Shown: piece after piece, positions 2,245 through 49,581 of the stretch
How positions within the stretch are numbered: the first letter of the stretch is position 1
How the letters are laid out: every line of letters begins with the position of its first letter
Source: Luteipulveratus mongoliensis
Lineage (GTDB): Bacteria > Actinomycetota > Actinomycetes > Actinomycetales > Dermatophilaceae
Direction: 5' to 3'
Assembly (NCBI RefSeq): GCF_001190945.1
Contig: NZ_CP011112.1
Coordinates: 1,240,001 to 1,304,000, forward strand
DNA: 64,000 nucleotides
Made by a program: the position numbers and the translations under genes
Notes under the pieces: generated by a model
Seen by the model: only the letters and a program-made list of their open reading frames with translations
Database searches by the model: none
Told to the model about the DNA's origin: nothing

Positions 2245-4812
2245 TTGGACCTGCAGCTCACCACGAAGGCGCAAGAGGCGCTGTCCTCCGCCGTCCGCCA
2301 CGCGACATCGTCCGGCCACCCACAGGTGGAGCCGGCGCATCTGCTGCTTGCGCTGACCGAGCAGACCGACACCACGACCGCGCCACTGCTCGAAGCCGTC
2401 GGTACGACGGTCGCGGCTGTCCGGGCCACGGCTCAAGCCGCGGTCGATGCCCTTCCGTCGGCGACCGGCGCCTCAGTGGCGCAGCCGTCGATGTCCCGGG
2501 CGATGCTCAACGTGCTGGAGCAGGCTCGTGAGCTGATGACCTCGATGGGGGACACCTACGTCTCCACCGACCACCTCCTCGTGGCGACCGCGCGGATCGG
2601 CGACTTCGGTTTGGACGCAACGGCTTTGGAGCAGGCGCTGCCCGCCACGCGCGGTGGTGCGAAGGTCACCTCGGCCGAGCCCGAGGGCACGTTCGACGCG
2701 CTCGAGAAGTACGGCACTGACCTGACCGACGCGGCCCGCGAAGGTCGCCTGGACCCGGTCATCGGCCGCGACTCCGAGATCCGACGCGTCGTGCAGGTGC
2801 TGTCCCGACGTACCAAGAACAACCCGGTTCTCATCGGTGACCCGGGCGTCGGCAAGACGGCTGTCGTCGAAGGTCTGGCCCAGCGCATTGTCGAGGGCGA
2901 CGTCCCAGAATCGTTGCGGGACAAGCGTTTGGTGTCGCTCGACCTCGGTGCGATGGTCGCGGGTGCGAAGTACCGTGGCGAGTTCGAGGAGCGGCTCAAG
3001 GCCGTGCTCGAGGAGATCAAGGGCAGCGGTGGCCAGGTCGTCACCTTCATTGACGAGCTGCACACCGTGGTCGGCGCGGGGGCGACCGGCGAAGGCGCGA
3101 TGGACGCCAGCAACATGCTTAAGCCGATGCTGGCCCGTGGCGAGCTGCGACTCGTCGGCGCGACGACGCTGGACGAATATCGCGAGCACATCGAGAAGGA
3201 CGCCGCGTTGGAGCGGCGCTTCCAGCAGGTGTTCGTGGGTGAGCCGTCCGTCGAGGACACCATCGCGATCCTGCGCGGACTCAAGGAGCGCTACGAGGCG
3301 CACCACAAGGTCGCGATCGCGGATTCCGCTCTCGTTGCTGCGGCTTCGCTGTCCGACCGCTACATCACCTCGCGTCAGCTGCCCGACAAGGCGATCGATC
3401 TGATCGACGAGGCGGCATCGCGGCTGCGCATGGAGATCGACTCCTCGCCGGTCGAGATCGACGAGCTCCGACGCGCGGTCGACCGGCTCAAGATGGAAGA
3501 GCTGCACCTGCAGAACGAGTCCGACGACGCCTCGCGCGAGCGGTTGCGTCGGCTGCAGTCCGACCTGGCCGACAAGCAGGAGCAGCTCGCTGCGCTGACG
3601 GCTCGATGGGATGCCGAGAAGGCCGGCCTCAACCGGGTCGGTGACATCAAGGCGCGCATCGATGAGCTGCGCACTCAGGCGGATCGCCTTCAGCGAGAAG
3701 GAGATTACGCCGGCGCGTCCAAGCTGCTGTACGGCGACCTCCCGGCTCTCGAGGCCGACCTCACCTCCGCGCAGGAGGCCGAGGCGACCTCATCGACGGC
3801 CGGCGGAGACGACCCGATGGTCAAGGAGGAGGTCGGCGCCGACGACATCGCCGACGTCATCTCGTCCTGGACCGGCATCCCGGCCGGGCGCCTCCTGGAG
3901 GGTGAGACCGAAAAGCTCCTCAAGATGGAGTCGGTCATCGGTGAGCGGCTGATCGGCCAATCTGAAGCAATCGCAGCGGTTTCCGATGCCGTACGCCGGT
4001 CGCGCGCCGGTGTGGCCGACCCGGACCGGCCGACAGGCTCGTTCCTGTTCCTCGGTCCGACGGGTGTCGGCAAGACCGAGCTGGCGAAGTCACTCGCCGA
4101 CTTCCTGTTCGACGACGAGCGGGCGATGGTCCGCATCGACATGTCGGAGTACTCCGAGCGGCACGCGGTGGCGCGGCTGATCGGGTCGCCTCCCGGCTAC
4201 GTCGGCTACGAAGAGGGAGGCCAGCTGACGGAAGCGGTGCGGCGGCGGCCGTACAGCGTGGTCCTGCTCGACGAGGTCGAGAAGGCGCACCCGGAGACGT
4301 TCGACATCCTGCTGCAGGTGCTCGACGACGGGCGGCTGACCGATGGGCAGGGACGCACGGTCGACTTCCGCAACGTGATCCTGGTGATGACGTCCAACCT
4401 GGGCTCGCAGTACCTCATCGACCCGACACTGTCCGACGACGCCAAGCGCGAGTCGGTGATGGGCGCGGTGCGGCAGGCGTTCAAGCCGGAGTTCCTCAAT
4501 CGGCTCGACGAGGTCGTGATCTTCGACCCGCTGTCGCAGGAGGAGCTGGCCCACATCGTCGACCTGCAGGTCGCTGAGCTGGGCTCCCGGCTCGCGGACC
4601 GGCGGATCACGCTGTCCGTGACGGATGCCGCTCGTGACTGGCTGGCCGACAAGGGCTACGACCCGGCGTACGGCGCCCGCCCCCTGCGGCGGCTGGTCCA
4701 GAAGGAGGTCGGCGACCGGCTCGCCAAGGCCCTCCTCGCCGGTGACATCCGCGACGGCCAGCAGGTCACCGTCGACAAGGACCCCGACGCGGACACCCTC
4801 ACCCTCACCTGA
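2245..4812 (+). CDS. clpB: ATP-dependent disaggregase ClpB
   Basis: ClpB is a cytosolic hexameric AAA+ chaperone that pulls polypeptides out of aggregates together with DnaK. The 855-residue product has an N-terminal Clp_N double repeat (about 1-150). The first AAA+ module has Walker A GDPGVGKT at residue 198. A coiled-coil middle domain follows (about 410-530), and the second AAA+ module has GPTGVGKT at residue 604. The middle domain separates it from ClpA and ClpC. I chose the TTG at 2245 because GAGGGGT lies 7 bases upstream and the protein then begins [13 protein letters not shown], as ClpB proteins do. The frame stays open back to 2122, but that adds unrelated repeat-derived sequence. 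The HAIR box upstream suggests heat-shock control by HspR. Confidence 0.97.
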
Positions 4813-4910
4813 CCCGCCCTCCCGCACAGCCTTCGCCGAGAGGCATACCTATCGCTCGAGAGGCACACCCGCGAGGTGTGCCTCTCAGTGCGTTGGTTTG
4901 CCTCTCGGCG
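4802..4910. repeat. 109-bp direct repeat, left copy, with nested inverted repeats
   Basis: The sequence matches 5888-5996 at 104 of 109 positions. It begins within the last codons of clpB and ends one base before the stop codon of the enclosed minus-strand gene. Inside it, four copies of GAGAGGCA are arranged as two forward and two reverse. They form an outer 16-bp stem with one mismatch (4834-4849 with 4895-4910) and a perfect inner 12-bp stem (4858-4869 with 4875-4886). It could act as the clpB terminator. Confidence 0.9.
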
Positions 4911-5861
4911 TCAGTGGCAGAGCCAGGTATCGACGGGTATCGGCCGCAGACCACAGGCGTCCATCACCTGACGGAATCGTTCGAGGTGGTACGCGTCGTC
5001 CCAGACCCAGCGTCTGACCCGTCGTTCGCCGGCACTGAGGCGGTCCTCGCGCTGCTTCTCTTTCCAGAGCACGGCCGAGGCCTCATCCGCGGACGCGCCC
5101 TCTGGCACCCGGTACTTCACTCGACCGTCGAACTCACCGATGAGCGCATAGCCCTCCCACCAGAAGTCGACGCGCCCGATCAGACCGCGCGCATCGGTGA
5201 AGTTGATCTGGAGGACCGGCTTGGGCGGTCCTAGCTGGTACATCCGGACTCGACTCAAGGACTCGCCCACGGACTCCGACAGCGGATCGGCCAGGCACAC
5301 GACTCGGCGCGCGTTCCGTTTACGGCGTGCGCCCTTGGGTAGGAGATCGCACTCAGCTTGCAGCTCCTCGACCGTGCAGAGTTCGAGTCGCAGGGCGTGG
5401 TCGGCTGCGGCTACTGCCGATTCGAGCCGGACCTCGCGCGCGAGATCGATGACGGTACGCGCTGGTGCGGTGACGAGGACGTCGTCCTTGATGACGCCTT
5501 CGGGCAGGTTCTTCGCGCGTCGTCGACGGACGCCAGGTGTGCGACCTGCGGTGCCGGCGGGCGTGGTGTGCTCCACGAGCTCGGGCCACTGCCCGATGAT
5601 CGGAAGTCCCCAGAGTGCCGCAGCGCTGTGGTGTGAGAACAGGTGATCGTCCTCGGCCAAGCAGTCGACGGCATGGACCCGCAGCGCCAGCTGCTCCCGG
5701 GGCTCGAGTGCCTGCCATGTGGTGCGGTCGACATAGGTGCCCTGACGTAGACGCTGGTGCTCCGGCTGTGCGCCGGTTGACGCGACTCCCGCACGGTGCA
5801 GTGTGCCCACCGGCCACAGCAGCTCGCGCAGACTGGTGCTCGGTTCATCCGCTGAGGTCAT
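4911..5861 (-). CDS. AbiEi-like / PD-(D/E)XK nuclease-fold protein, single-gene cassette cargo
   Basis: The protein has 316 residues. The N-terminal half has the winged-helix-like features of the actinobacterial 'type IV TA system AbiEi family antitoxin domain' proteins, including the hallmark HHSAAALWGLP. The C-terminal part reads VDFWW, then EFDGRVKY, then EKQRED; this spacing fits a DUF559/Vsr-like PD-(D/E)XK nuclease core (D, ExD, K). No AbiEii-type toxin gene is adjacent, so it is not an obvious toxin-antitoxin pair. The ATG at 5861 is preferred; a GTG at 5894 lies inside the flanking repeat. The gene fills the interval between the two 109-bp repeats almost exactly. Function is unknown; defence or DNA processing is an inference from the fold. 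Confidence 0.75.
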   Translation of the reverse strand: MTSADEPSTSLRELLWPVGTLHRAGVASTGAQPEHQRLRQGTYVDRTTWQALEPREQLALRVHAVDCLAEDDHLFSHHSAAALWGLPIIGQWPELVEHTTPAGTAGRTPGVRRRRAKNLPEGVIKDDVLVTAPARTVIDLAREVRLESAVAAADHALRLELCTVEELQAECDLLPKGARRKRNARRVVCLADPLSESVGESLSRVRMYQLGPPKPVLQINFTDARGLIGRVDFWWEGYALIGEFDGRVKYRVPEGASADEASAVLWKEKQREDRLSAGERRVRRWVWDDAYHLERFRQVMDACGLRPIPVDTWLCH

Positions 5862-5887
5862 GGCCGAAGGGTGGCAGGGAGTCCGAG

Positions 5888-5996
5888 CCCTCACCTGACC
5901 CGCCCTCCCGCACAGCCTTCGCCGAGAGGCAAACCGATCGTTCGAGAGGCACGCCCGCGAGGTGTGCCTCTCAGTGGGTTGGTTTGCCTCTCGGCG
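5888..5996. repeat. 109-bp direct repeat, right copy, with nested inverted repeats
   Basis: This is the partner of 4802-4910 and includes a duplicate of the last bases of clpB. Its outer stem is a perfect 16 bp (5920-5935 with 5981-5996). Its inner stem has one wobble (5944-5955 with 5961-5972). It lies just upstream of the cassette gene and downstream of the hydrolase on the minus strand. Confidence 0.9.
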
Positions 5997-22431: not shown

Positions 22432-22526
22432 CCGCTGGTTGAGCCGACCGGGAGCGCGTCTCGATACTCGGGCTCGCCCGGCTCAACCAGCGGGGACGGC
22501 TCGGGCTCGCCCGGCTCAACCAGCGG
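22432..22526. repeat. GCTGGTTGAGCCG inverted-repeat cluster between convergent genes
   Basis: The arm CCGCTGGTTGAGCCG (22432-22446) pairs perfectly with two tandem reverse arms (22479-22493 and 22512-22526), each preceded by CTCGGGCTCGCC. It lies between pntB and the convergent kinase gene, so it can act as a bidirectional terminator. It is also a relative of the repeat at 27054. Confidence 0.8.
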
Positions 22527-27034: not shown

Positions 27035-27053
27035 GACGAGCCAGCGTAGTCAC

Positions 27054-27094
27054 CCGCTGGTTGAGCCGGCATGGTCTCCGGCTCAACCCGGCGG
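27054..27094. terminator. GCTGGTTGAGCCGG inverted repeat
   Basis: The arm CCGCTGGTTGAGCCGG pairs, with a few mismatches, with CCGGCTCAACCCGGCGG. It belongs to the same family as 22432-22526. It lies downstream of the secreted-protein gene and upstream of the kinase, both on the minus strand, so a terminator role for the former is likely. Confidence 0.65.
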
Positions 27095-27101
27095 TGTGCG
27101 G

Positions 27102-28909: not shown

Positions 28910-30442
<1,533 letters not shown>

Positions 30443-30495
30443 CCCGCCCGCCGGCGGCGTCGGGAGAGCGCCCGTCGTATCGAGACCGGGCCGCA

Positions 30496-30567
30496 TGAGA
30501 GTGGCCCACAACCTGCACGAGCGGCCCACCACTCGGTGGGCCACCGGTGACACTGGTGGGCCACTCT
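30496..30567. repeat. Nested inverted repeat built from GTGGGCC arms
   Basis: The outer arms are a perfect 13 bp (GAGAGTGGCCCAC 30496-30508 with 30555-30567). The inner arms are a perfect 8 bp (GGCCCACC 30522-30529 with 30534-30541). Two forward and two reverse copies of GGCCCAC repeat the architecture of the element at 4802, with a different sequence. It lies downstream of the acyl-CoA synthetase and may be its terminator. Confidence 0.8.
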
Positions 30568-30617
30568 CGGAGCGGCCCGGCGAGCAACCTTTCGCTGACC
30601 TGCTGCGTAGTTCACGT

Positions 30618-31485: not shown

Positions 31486-32794
31486 TGTCAAGGCTCAGGA
31501 CATCGGTAACACTCTTTCGGTCCAGGACATCGGTGACGGTGTCCTGGACCGGATGATGAGTTATGGGTAGAAGTGATGCTGAGCCGATCGGTCCTGAAGT
31601 AGCGGCGGCGGTAGCTGCGAAGCATCGAGGCGACTGTGTGAACGTGGCGGCATTTTGTGCCCAGCAGGGCCTGTCGCGTAAGTCGTTCTACAAGTACTTG
31701 GCCCGGTTTGCCGCTTCAGGAGTGTCGGGCTTCTACCCCGATTCGCGCCGCCCGCACGCCTGTCCGACAGCCGTCTCGTCCGTTGTCGAGGACCTGATTG
31801 TGTTGGCCCGCAAGCGTTTAGAGGATCAGGGCTGGGACGCCGGAGCGAACTCGATCGTGTACTGGCTGCTGGATCACCCCGCTGAGTGGCCGGTCACGAT
31901 GCACGGTGTCCCATCGCGGTCGACGATCAACCGAGTCCTTAAGCGTCGCGGTCTGCTGGTCCTGGTGCCACGGCGGGCTCCCAGCCGGCATCGGCGTCGG
32001 TTCGAGGCCGCCCACCCCAACACCCGTTGGCAGATGGACGGATTCGAGTACACCCTGGCCTCCGGAGCCATCGTTGTCGTGCTGCACCTCGTGGATGACT
32101 GCTCACGGATGGACCTGGCTTGCCACGCCGCTCGCAGCGAGAACTCCCAGGACGTGTGGGCGGCATTCGCCGGCGCAGTCCAGAGGTACGGGCTGCCAGC
32201 ACAGCTGCTCACCGACAACGGCACCGCGTTCTCAGGTCGCCGTCGAGGCTGGACATCGACCCTGGAAACGAACGCCAATGTCCTCGGCGTGCACCACTTC
32301 ACCTCCTCGGTCGGACACCCGCAAACCTGCGGCAAGGTCGAACGAGCCCATCAGACCTGCTTGAAATGGCTCCGCAAACGCCCGCCTGCCCAGGACCTCG
32401 CACAGTTGCAAGACCTGCTGGATCGCTACCGCGAGCACTACAACCATCGGCGGCGTCACCAACATCTCGATGGCCTGACACCAGCCCAGCGCTACGAGCT
32501 AGGTCCCAAAGACCAGCCCGGGCCAGCCACGACTGCACCGGTCTATGTAACCCGCCGCATCGTGGCCAAGAACGGCTCCATCGGGATCGAAGGCGTCCTG
32601 GTCGGCGTCAGCAAGAAAGTCGCCTCGCAGGAGGTCCTCGTGATCCACCGCGGACGCCACCTGGCCATCTTCATCGGCAACAACCTCATACGCGAGATCA
32701 CCCTCACTGTCGCCAAAGGTGGCTACCAACGAATCGCCAAAGCGTCACCGAAGTCCTGAACCGCAAACTGTCACCGATGTCCTGAGACATCACA
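31486..32794 (+). mobile_element. Intact IS481-family insertion sequence (1309 bp)
   Basis: The ends begin TGT and read inward as TGTCAAGGCTCAGGACATCG at the left and TGTGATGTCTCAGGACATCG at the right; 23 of the first 28 bases match. Each end carries a second, tandem copy of CAGGACxTCGGTGAC, probably a transposase-binding site. GCGC flanks both ends (31482-31485 and 32795-32798) and may be the target duplication. One intact transposase gene fills the interior. Removing the element restores a long palindrome. Confidence 0.88.
31563..32759 (+). CDS. IS481-family transposase
   Basis: The product has 398 residues: an N-terminal helix-turn-helix (about 15-60, CAQQGLSRKSFYKYL), a second HTH-like segment, then an rve integrase core. 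The catalytic triad is complete: Asp 159 (QMDGFEY), Asp 218 (LLTDNGTAF) and Glu 260 (GKVERAHQ). A C-terminal beta domain follows. The absence of stops or frameshifts suggests recent insertion. Confidence 0.95.
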   Translation: MGRSDAEPIGPEVAAAVAAKHRGDCVNVAAFCAQQGLSRKSFYKYLARFAASGVSGFYPDSRRPHACPTAVSSVVEDLIVLARKRLEDQGWDAGANSIVYWLLDHPAEWPVTMHGVPSRSTINRVLKRRGLLVLVPRRAPSRHRRRFEAAHPNTRWQMDGFEYTLASGAIVVVLHLVDDCSRMDLACHAARSENSQDVWAAFAGAVQRYGLPAQLLTDNGTAFSGRRRGWTSTLETNANVLGVHHFTSSVGHPQTCGKVERAHQTCLKWLRKRPPAQDLAQLQDLLDRYREHYNHRRRHQHLDGLTPAQRYELGPKDQPGPATTAPVYVTRRIVAKNGSIGIEGVLVGVSKKVASQEVLVIHRGRHLAIFIGNNLIREITLTVAKGGYQRIAKASPKS

Positions 32795-47884: not shown

Positions 47885-49581
47885 GGCCACACCGCGTGGT
47901 CGTCGTCGGGCACGGCATGGTCGCCGCGCGCTTCCTGGACGATCTGGATCGACTGTCCCGTACGACGTCCGCTCGCCTTGACGTCACGGTGCTGGGTGAG
48001 GAGCCGTACGAGCCGTACAACCGGCTCATGCTGAGCGAGGTCATCGCTGGGAGGGCCGATCTCAACGCACTCACGCTGCCCGCGGCGCCCGCCGCGATGG
48101 CGGTTCATCGAGGCAGCCGGGCTGCGGTCCTCGACCGCGACCGCCACTTGGTCATCGATGAGTTCGGCCGCGAGCACCCTTATGACACAGCCGTTCTCGC
48201 GACCGGATCAGCCGCGCGCATCCCTCCGATCGAGGGACTGCACGATGCTGAGCACGGCCTGTCCGGCGTCCGTGCGCTGCGGAGCATCGACGACTGCCGC
48301 GAGCTGCTCGCCGCGTGCAGCCGGGTCCGTCATGTGACGGTGCTGGGGGCGGGATTGCTGGGCGTCGAAGTCGCTTGTGGGCTTCGCACCCGCGATGTCG
48401 AGGTCACTGTCGTGCACCTCGGTGAGCACGTGATGGATCGTCAGCTCGATAGCACCTCAGCGGCGGTTGCCAGCCGGACGCTGCAGGACCTCGGCATCGA
48501 CGTACGTGCGGGGGTCGGCCTCGACCAGGCCGTCAGGGACGGTGCGAGTGTCACCGAGGTCGTCCTGAGTGACGGTTCACGTGTCCGCACGGACCTGGTC
48601 GTCCTGACCGCGGGCGTGGCTCCGCGCGTTGAGATCGCTTCTGCGGCAGGGCTTCCCGTCGATCTCGGCATCGTTGTCGGCAGCGACCTGCGCTCACCGG
48701 CGGACCCATCGGTCGCCGCTATCGGCGACTGCGCCCAGACACCCGACGGCTGCCCAGGTCTACTCGCTCCCGGATGGGACCAAGCCCATCGCCTCGCCAC
48801 CGACCTCGCTGGTCGAGTAGGCGAGCCCAACCCCTCCGGTCGAGTAGGCAAGCCCAACCCCGCTGGTCGAGTAGGCGAGCCCCCCAGGGCGAGCCGTATC
48901 GAGACCACCGACACGGCGGACGTCGAGTCTCCCCAGGACTCAACGGGTCTCGATACGCCCTCGGCTAGCGCCTCGGGCTACTCGACCAGCGGTACGAGTG
49001 TGGTGAAGCTCAAGGCGGTTGGACTGGAGATGGTGACGCTCGGCGAACCGCTGCCCACGGACGAGCTCGCCCCCGACGCCGGTCGCGTCGTCTCGCTGGT
49101 CGACGCCCGAGCCCGCCGGTCCGTCCGCGTCGCGATCCGCGACGAGATGGTCGTGGGCGCGGTCTGCATCGGTAGCCCGGACGTTGCCGCGGACCTCACG
49201 GTGGCGTACGAGCGTCGTACGCCGATCCCGACCGACCCGGCACTGCTGCTCGTCCGCGGACCGGCGGGCGCCGGCGTACCCACGGTTCAGACCCCGACGG
49301 CGATGCCCGGGTCGGCGACGGTCTGTCGCTGCAACGGCGTCACCAAGAAGGAGATCGTCGACGCCCATGTCTGCGGCGACCGCTCCGTGGCCGAGGTCGC
49401 CTGCCGGACCCGCGCGACGACCGGCTGCGGCGGCTGCACCGGCATCGTCCAGGGCCTCCTCGACTGGATGGACGACGTCAATCCCACCTCGATCGAACCC
49501 GACGATCGACCTGCCTTTCCGTCAGCCCTCGTGCACCAAACGTCACAACGATCGTCAAGGCAGCAAGGAGAGACGGTATGA
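47881..49581 (+). CDS. FAD/NAD(P)H oxidoreductase with C-terminal BFD [2Fe-2S] domain; nitrate reductase electron donor (NasB-like)
   Basis: The protein has 566 residues. A pyridine-nucleotide-disulfide oxidoreductase fold opens with VVVGHGMVAARFLDDL, and the second Rossmann motif is TVLGAGLLGVE. A BFD-like [2Fe-2S] domain ends the protein, with Cys 482, 484, 516 and 519. It resembles the N-terminal half of NirB and is expected to pass NAD(P)H electrons to the nitrate reductase encoded just before. About 62 residues near 309-371 (GRVGEPNPSGRVGKPNPAG... to STSGTS) are encoded by an in-frame dispersed repeat. This insert lies after the FAD domain, next to VVKLKAVGLEM. Confidence 0.9.
   Translation: MRPHRVVVVGHGMVAARFLDDLDRLSRTTSARLDVTVLGEEPYEPYNRLMLSEVIAGRADLNALTLPAAPAAMAVHRGSRAAVLDRDRHLVIDEFGREHPYDTAVLATGSAARIPPIEGLHDAEHGLSGVRALRSIDDCRELLAACSRVRHVTVLGAGLLGVEVACGLRTRDVEVTVVHLGEHVMDRQLDSTSAAVASRTLQDLGIDVRAGVGLDQAVRDGASVTEVVLSDGSRVRTDLVVLTAGVAPRVEIASAAGLPVDLGIVVGSDLRSPADPSVAAIGDCAQTPDGCPGLLAPGWDQAHRLATDLAGRVGEPNPSGRVGKPNPAGRVGEPPRASRIETTDTADVESPQDSTGLDTPSASASGYSTSGTSVVKLKAVGLEMVTLGEPLPTDELAPDAGRVVSLVDARARRSVRVAIRDEMVVGAVCIGSPDVAADLTVAYERRTPIPTDPALLLVRGPAGAGVPTVQTPTAMPGSATVCRCNGVTKKEIVDAHVCGDRSVAEVACRTRATTGCGGCTGIVQGLLDWMDDVNPTSIEPDDRPAFPSALVHQTSQRSSRQQGETV
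48807..48991. repeat. Full nested inverted repeat (TCGAGTAG family) inside a coding gene
   Basis: The outer arms are a perfect 14 bp (CGCTGGTCGAGTAG 48807-48820 with 48978-48991). The inner arms are a perfect 12 bp (CGTATCGAGACC 48895-48906 with 48946-48957). The forward arm is present three times, giving the protein repeats GRVGEPNP, GRVGKPNP and GRVGEPPR. No stop codon arises in the coding frame. Confidence 0.88.

What the first reader, a model, noticed from the sequence alone, without database searches (positions are those of the whole stretch)
30496..30567. Unrelated sequences share the same nested four-arm architecture
The elements at 4802/5888 (GAGAGGCA), 30496 (GGCCCAC) and 48807 (TCGAGTAG/TATCGAGACC) have no sequence in common. 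All are outer arm, inner arm, inner arm', outer arm'. A shared design with different sequences suggests a class of elements that may be copied by related mechanisms, or a structured-RNA class.
Basis: partly seen in the sequence, partly recalled or inferred. Interest (0 to 1): 0.6.

Follow-up and report, generated by a model that had tools for sequence, protein, structure and literature searches.

The report
Nuclease genes bracketed by four-site palindromes
The odd nested palindromes belong to a large, apparently undescribed class of short DNA elements in actinobacteria: each version brackets a gene for a predicted DNA-cutting enzyme on both sides and is also scattered around the same chromosome, as if each enzyme maintains or spreads its own private palindrome.

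Summary
The elements at 4834-4910/5920-5996 (F1) and 30496-30568 (F2) have no sequence in common but the same design: a short site M, M again 20 bp on, then M' and M', also 20 bp apart. The third (48860-48992) is a different, high-copy inverted repeat. Over 1.66 Mb of this genome the design occurs 21 times at 19-20 bp spacing, against 1.5 expected. The explanation lies between the two F1 copies: a gene (4911-5894, minus) for an AbiEi-like DNA-binding module fused to a Vsr-like nuclease (model pLDDT 91; best folds AbiEi and homing endonuclease I-Bth0305I). All eight such genes in the genome are bracketed by their own palindrome pair, and at least five of the palindromes are also dispersed as solo copies. 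In other actinobacteria 61 of 78 homologues carry a matched pair, against 2 of 312 in mismatched controls; 37 of 61 show the 19-bp period and 12 the 20-bp period. The pairing is strongly supported. That the nuclease binds and cuts its palindrome and spreads it is inferred. It works like a REP/RAYT "REPtron" but is not one. F2 is an orphan family without a nuclease here. The structured-RNA reading is not supported.

The parts
4834..4910 (.). F1 element copy 1: four sites of CGAGAGGCAnACC (M at 4838 and 4858, M' at 4879 and 4899; period 20 bp), just after the clpB stop
   Evidence: 12 copies in the genome
4911..5894 (-). P0001, AbiEi-like DNA-binding module fused to a C-terminal Vsr-like PD-(D/E)XK nuclease (invariant E211, D243, E254, D256, K280). 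Longest reading frame; the true start is probably the ATG at about 5861
5920..5996 (.). F1 element copy 2, same orientation, sites at 5924, 5944, 5965, 5985
4802..4833 (+). clpB tail and stop (CCCTCACCTGACCCGCC...), left copy of the 109-bp direct repeat 4802-4910 / 5888-5996
5888..5919 (+). duplicated clpB tail between the nuclease gene and F1 copy 2
30496..30568 (.). F2 element: GGCCCAC at 30503 and 30523, GTGGGCC at 30536 and 30556 (period 20 bp), 54 bp after the AMP-binding gene (28910-30442). Orphan family: 8 copies, no nuclease with F2 flanks found
48860..48992 (.). Not a member: inverted pair of a ~47-bp high-copy repeat (CCGCTGGTCGAGTAG...GTATCGAGACC at 48860-48907, reverse unit 48946-48992)

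Best explanation
The elements are the cognate DNA of a family of AbiEi-Vsr nucleases. Each nuclease gene is bracketed on both sides by a 60-120 bp palindrome that carries, in most families, two direct copies of a short site 19-20 bp apart (about two helical turns) facing two inverted copies. Solo copies of the same palindrome lie elsewhere in the chromosome, mostly near gene ends. SHOWN: the architecture, the bracketing, its specificity (one palindrome per gene), the solo copies, the predicted fold, the conserved catalytic residues, and presence/absence at the same site between related species. INFERRED: the AbiEi-like module binds the four sites as two facing dimers; the Vsr-like domain nicks or cuts within or beside the element; repair copies the element, and occasionally the whole element-gene-element unit, to new places, as RAYT is thought to do for REPs. 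Orphan families such as F2 would be left when the nuclease gene is lost. The nuclease behaves as a long-term chromosomal resident rather than a self-spreading transposon.
For: Own genome: 8 of 8 family members are bracketed by a matched palindrome pair (scores 73-193), each with a different sequence; two weak profile hits (25 and 32 bits), whose membership is doubtful, are not bracketed. Other actinobacteria: 61 of 78 homologues bracketed, against 2 of 312 cross-locus and 12 of 975 same-locus controls. In those 61 elements, exact 6-mers repeat at lag 19 in 37 and lag 20 in 12, against about 2.5 expected; four-site geometry in 47 of 61 against 6.2 in shuffles. Copies in 1.66 Mb: F1 9 (7 of them solo), F3 7, F4 6, F6 8, F7 7. 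F1-like DNA is found in 7 of 148 related genomes; the six other than the window's own all rank among the best P0001 homologues. Model: residues 24-203 like AbiEi (Z 11.2, rmsd 6.5), residues 208-317 like I-Bth0305I (Z 9.8, rmsd 2.4) and Vsr (Z 8.7); AbiEi profile match E 1.2e-10. Solved relatives of the AbiEi part bind paired 23-bp inverted repeats (PMC7319586). Same-site comparison of three congeners: G089 has neither palindrome nor nuclease, G061 has palindrome, truncated nuclease, palindrome, and G012 has a different palindrome pair with an intact nuclease. After clpB, G000, G001 and G002 have the unit while G020 has only another solo palindrome.
Against: No cleavage, binding or movement was observed. 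No consistent target-site duplication flanks solo copies (one 19-bp case of 34). Element similarity tracks protein similarity only weakly (Mantel r 0.16, none of 2000 permutations as high), because elements turn over faster than proteins. 17 of 78 homologues lack a detectable pair. More distant nucleases carry palindromes without the clear four-site period (F6, F7). Almost none are on plasmids (4 of 72,556 records) and none in phages, which argues against a freely mobile element. F2, the element named in the finding, has no identified nuclease.
Confidence: 0.62

Rival explanations
1. Operator model: the protein is a transcription factor (AbiEi-like autoregulator) with an inactive or incidental nuclease fold; the flanking palindromes are its operators and the solo copies its regulon.
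For: AbiEi fold and profile match. AbiEi-family antitoxins autoregulate by binding paired inverted repeats upstream of their own gene (PMC7319586). Four duplex-like sites.
Against: Palindromes sit on both sides of the gene, including its 3' side. Solo copies often lie just after stop codons. Nuclease residues E211, D243, E254, D256 and K280 are invariant in 45 homologues.
Confidence: 0.17
2. Homing-type selfish gene: the nuclease cuts solo elements in genomes or alleles that lack the gene, and the element-gene-element unit is copied in by recombination between elements. Solo copies are targets or remnants (like solo LTRs), not products of active spread.
For: Catalytic domain closest to the Vsr-like homing endonuclease I-Bth0305I. 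Direct-repeat bracketing with duplicated clpB tail. Occupied, degraded and empty versions of one site. Fast turnover of element sequence.
Against: Both bracketing elements look intact, so the gene's own locus would stay cuttable, unlike in known homing genes. Seven or more solo copies per family with unrelated flanks need a copying step. Nearly absent from plasmids and phages.
Confidence: 0.15
3. Structured RNA or transcription-terminator hairpins of convergent genes that happen to look alike.
For: Many copies lie close after stop codons. The same gene end carries different palindromes in three congeners.
Against: Spacers do not pair or covary. Exact 19-20 bp direct repetition is not needed by a hairpin. 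One-to-one association with a nuclease family. No Rfam match.
Confidence: 0.04

Closest known systems
REPtron: REP palindromes with RAYT/TnpA-REP (HUH, Y1 transposase)
   Same: A single-copy, chromosomal enzyme gene next to copies of its own palindrome; many solo copies; several enzyme-palindrome pairs per genome; behaves more like a housekeeping gene than a transposase (PMC8266576, PMC3733652)
   Different: Enzyme is AbiEi + Vsr-like PD-(D/E)XK, not HUH; no Y1_Tnp gene in this genome; palindromes are 60-120 bp with four sites at 19-20 bp period, not 20-40 bp GTAG-tagged hairpins
Vsr-like (EDxHD) homing endonuclease I-Bth0305I
   Same: Catalytic domain fold (Z 9.8, rmsd 2.4 over 92 residues); nuclease tied to a DNA target
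   Different: DNA-binding module is AbiEi-like; gene is bracketed by two whole elements rather than splitting one target; many solo elements
AbiEi / Rv2827c antitoxins (type IV toxin-antitoxin)
   Same: N-terminal two-thirds has the AbiEi fold (Z 11.2); AbiEi proteins bind paired 23-bp inverted repeats (PMC7319586)
   Different: Fused nuclease; palindromes on both sides of the gene and dispersed; DNA around P0001 holds clpB and a hydrolase, no toxin gene
DUF559 / Vsr mismatch-repair endonucleases (e.g. Caulobacter VsrA)
   Same: C-terminal nuclease domain type (PMC12907096); two relatives in this genome pass the DUF559 cut-off
   Different: No link to a cytosine methyltransferase seen (not searched for systematically); linked instead to palindromes

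Membership tests
REPtron (REP + RAYT) | Enzyme of the HUH Y1 transposase family (PF01797) | tested here: not met
   No Y1_Tnp match in the genome; P0001 has an AbiEi + Vsr-like fold
REPtron (REP + RAYT) | Enzyme gene adjacent to its own palindrome family, with dispersed solo copies | tested here: met
REPtron (REP + RAYT) | Short palindrome tagged with GTAG next to the stem | tested here: not met
   F1 and F2 sequences carry no GTAG tag; architecture is four sites at 20 bp
Homing endonuclease gene | Gene interrupts its single recognition site, protecting the host copy | tested here: not met
   Two complete elements bracket the gene in 61 of 78 homologues
Homing endonuclease gene | Site-specific cleavage followed by gene conversion | not testable with these tools
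   Needs biochemistry
Type IV toxin-antitoxin AbiE | AbiEi-type DNA-binding and antitoxin fold | tested here: met
Type IV toxin-antitoxin AbiE | Adjacent AbiEii nucleotidyltransferase toxin gene | tested here: not met
   Neighbours of P0001 are clpB and an alpha/beta hydrolase; checked for this one locus only
Classical insertion sequence / MITE | DDE, HUH or recombinase transposase with fixed-length target-site duplication | tested here: not met
   Vsr-like nuclease; no consistent duplication around 34 solo copies
Structured RNA class | Base pairing conserved by compensatory change | tested here: not met
   Spacers unpaired, no covariation in 12 F1 copies; no Rfam match
Vsr-like PD-(D/E)XK nuclease | Core fold with conserved acidic catalytic residues | tested here: met
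   E211, D243, E254, D256, K280 invariant; fold match Z 8.7-9.8

The most novel reading that the evidence does not exclude
A new class of prokaryotic nuclease-palindrome pairs: an AbiEi-like recognition module fused to a Vsr-like nuclease recognises four sites set 19-20 bp apart and spreads its palindrome around the chromosome, with many different specificities coexisting in one genome and changing quickly between species. It would be an independent invention of the REPtron principle in Actinomycetota, and part of the AbiEi family would be recast as a DNA-targeting module of mobile repeats.
Probability: 0.5. Interest if true: 0.9.

Novelty: categorically new. Interest (0 to 1): 0.82.

Why it matters
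It gives a partner and a probable mechanism to a large set of unexplained palindromic repeats in actinobacteria and to the abundant but functionally unassigned AbiEi/DUF559-type proteins. Each genome can hold several natural nuclease-site pairs with different sequences, so recognition rules of the AbiEi module could be read directly from matched pairs. It also makes testable how short repeats spread in genomes that lack RAYT transposases. Caveat: only an open-access paper library was searched, so an earlier description in a subscription journal cannot be excluded.

Tried and rejected
Rfam search of the window: no match. Scan of genome contigs with P0001 alone found nothing; a conserved sub-alignment was needed. 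Target-site duplications around 34 solo copies: none consistent, one 19-bp direct repeat at 571606. Exact empty-site junctions: gene pairs without the element exist in relatives, but intergenic DNA is too diverged to define junctions. Cognate nuclease for F2: none in the genome's family members or beside F2 copies examined; only one congener has full-length F2. Compensatory pairing in spacers: none. RAYT as mobiliser: no Y1_Tnp gene. Strong protein-element co-variation was expected; only a weak correlation was found because elements are already unrelated at 60% protein identity. Sequence search of solved structures gave only noise. A Nocardia empty-site search could not be centred there.

Full report
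WHAT IS THERE. The window is positions 1240001-1304000 of a complete 5.42-Mb actinobacterial chromosome. F1 (4834-4910 and 5920-5996) carries GAGAGGCA twice, 20 bp apart, then TGCCTCTC twice, 20 bp apart. F2 (30496-30568) carries GGCCCAC twice and GTGGGCC twice with the same steps. Outer and inner arms are the same motif, so each element is four copies of one site, two facing two. The 48807 example is different: outer and inner units differ, and it is an inverted pair of a repeat with 166 half-units in 1.66 Mb.

MORE THAN CHANCE. In 1.664 Mb of this genome, four-site hits with a 19-20 bp step number 21, against a mean of 1.5 and maximum of 4 in 20 shuffles. They fall into families with unrelated sites: F1 GAGAGGCA, F2 GGCCCAC, F3 TGACTC, F4 ACTACCCCGC, F5 GAGAGGCCCA. 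F1 has 12 and F2 has 8 copies in the genome, about 75-100% identical, in unrelated flanks.

THE KEY. Between the two F1 copies lies a gene (4911-5894, minus) with no Pfam or NCBIfam match. All its relatives in the same genome turned out to be bracketed by a matched pair of palindromes, each pair different: F1 around P0001, F3 around the gene at 810994, F4 around 1896602, F6 around 5155653, F7 around 2113627, and private ones around 1045784, 1558979 and 2732108. That is 8 of 8, whereas two weak profile hits are not bracketed. Five of these palindromes (F1, F3, F4, F6, F7) also occur as solo copies.

GENERALITY. In 80 homologue loci from other actinobacteria (Knoellia, Janibacter, Cellulomonas, Plantibacter, Nocardia, Microlunatus and others), 61 of 78 testable genes have a matched pair in their 450-bp flanks, against 2 of 312 when left and right flanks of different loci are compared and 12 of 975 at other positions of the same loci. 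In those 61 elements, exact 6-mers recur at lag 19 in 37 and lag 20 in 12, against about 2.5 expected at any lag; 47 of 61 have the four-site geometry against 6.2 in shuffles.

THE PROTEIN. The model of P0001 on 45 homologues has pLDDT 91 and pTM 0.89. Residues 24-203 align with the AbiEi antitoxin (Z 11.2, rmsd 6.5 over 164) and residues 208-317 with the homing endonuclease I-Bth0305I catalytic domain (Z 9.8, rmsd 2.4 over 92) and Vsr (Z 8.7). AbiEi profiles match at E 1.2e-10. Invariant residues include E211, D243, E254, D256 and K280 in the nuclease domain. AbiEi-family proteins are reported to bind paired 23-bp inverted repeats, and Rv2827c binds two such pairs (PMC7319586), which makes an AbiEi-like reader of a four-site element plausible.

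DUPLEX SITES, NOT RNA. In 12 F1 copies the four ~13-bp sites are nearly invariant while the spacers vary and pair no better than expected, mostly worse. This favours four protein-binding sites about two helical turns apart over a conserved hairpin.

MOVEMENT. Solo and bracketing elements come and go at fixed gene ends. Downstream of clpB the window's genome and two congeners have the unit, while a species of another genus has only a different solo palindrome. After the AMP-binding gene (28910-30442) the window has F2, and two congeners have two other palindromes. An F6 solo at 204699 is absent from the same gene pair in a congener. In another genus, one species has neither element nor nuclease, a second has palindrome, truncated nuclease, palindrome, and a third an intact nuclease with a different palindrome. 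No consistent target-site duplication was found. At P0001 the 3' tail of clpB is duplicated together with the element, giving a 109-bp direct repeat. The genes are nearly absent from plasmids and absent from phages in the collections searched, resembling RAYT genes, which are described as single-copy and housekeeping-like (PMC8266576). Elements are already unrelated between proteins 60% identical, so specificity changes quickly.

INTERPRETATION. Best supported: a nuclease-palindrome pair that works like a REPtron but with an unrelated enzyme. The association, architecture and predicted fold are shown; binding, cutting and spreading are inferred. F2, the element named in the finding, is an orphan family, probably left after loss of its nuclease (inference). 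No paper in the searched library was found to link AbiEi/DUF559 proteins with palindromes; that library is open access only.

Noticed in passing
48860-48992: Inverted pair of a ~47-bp repeat (CCGCTGGTCGAGTAG...GTATCGAGACC), 166 half-units in 1.66 Mb, often in head-to-head or tandem neighbours, lying inside a predicted oxidoreductase reading frame. No Y1 transposase in the genome, so its mobiliser is unknown.
   Followed up: partly
30443-30495 and downstream: The gene end after the AMP-binding gene carries three different palindromes in three congeners: a hot spot for such elements.
   Followed up: partly
30478-30568: F2 sits inside an outer inverted repeat CCGGGCCGC / GCGGCCCGG and next to a TATCGAGACC half-unit of the high-copy repeat.
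   Followed up: no
31563-32759: IS481-like integrase-core transposase gene about 1 kb from F2.
   Followed up: no
22432-22493 and 27051-27096: Inverted repeats built on CCGCTGGTTGAGCCG, probably another dispersed repeat; the 22432 one has only partial copies elsewhere in the sample.
   Followed up: no
L295 2037-3147 (G061): Degraded unit: palindromes intact on both sides of a nuclease gene that has lost its N-terminal part.
   Followed up: yes
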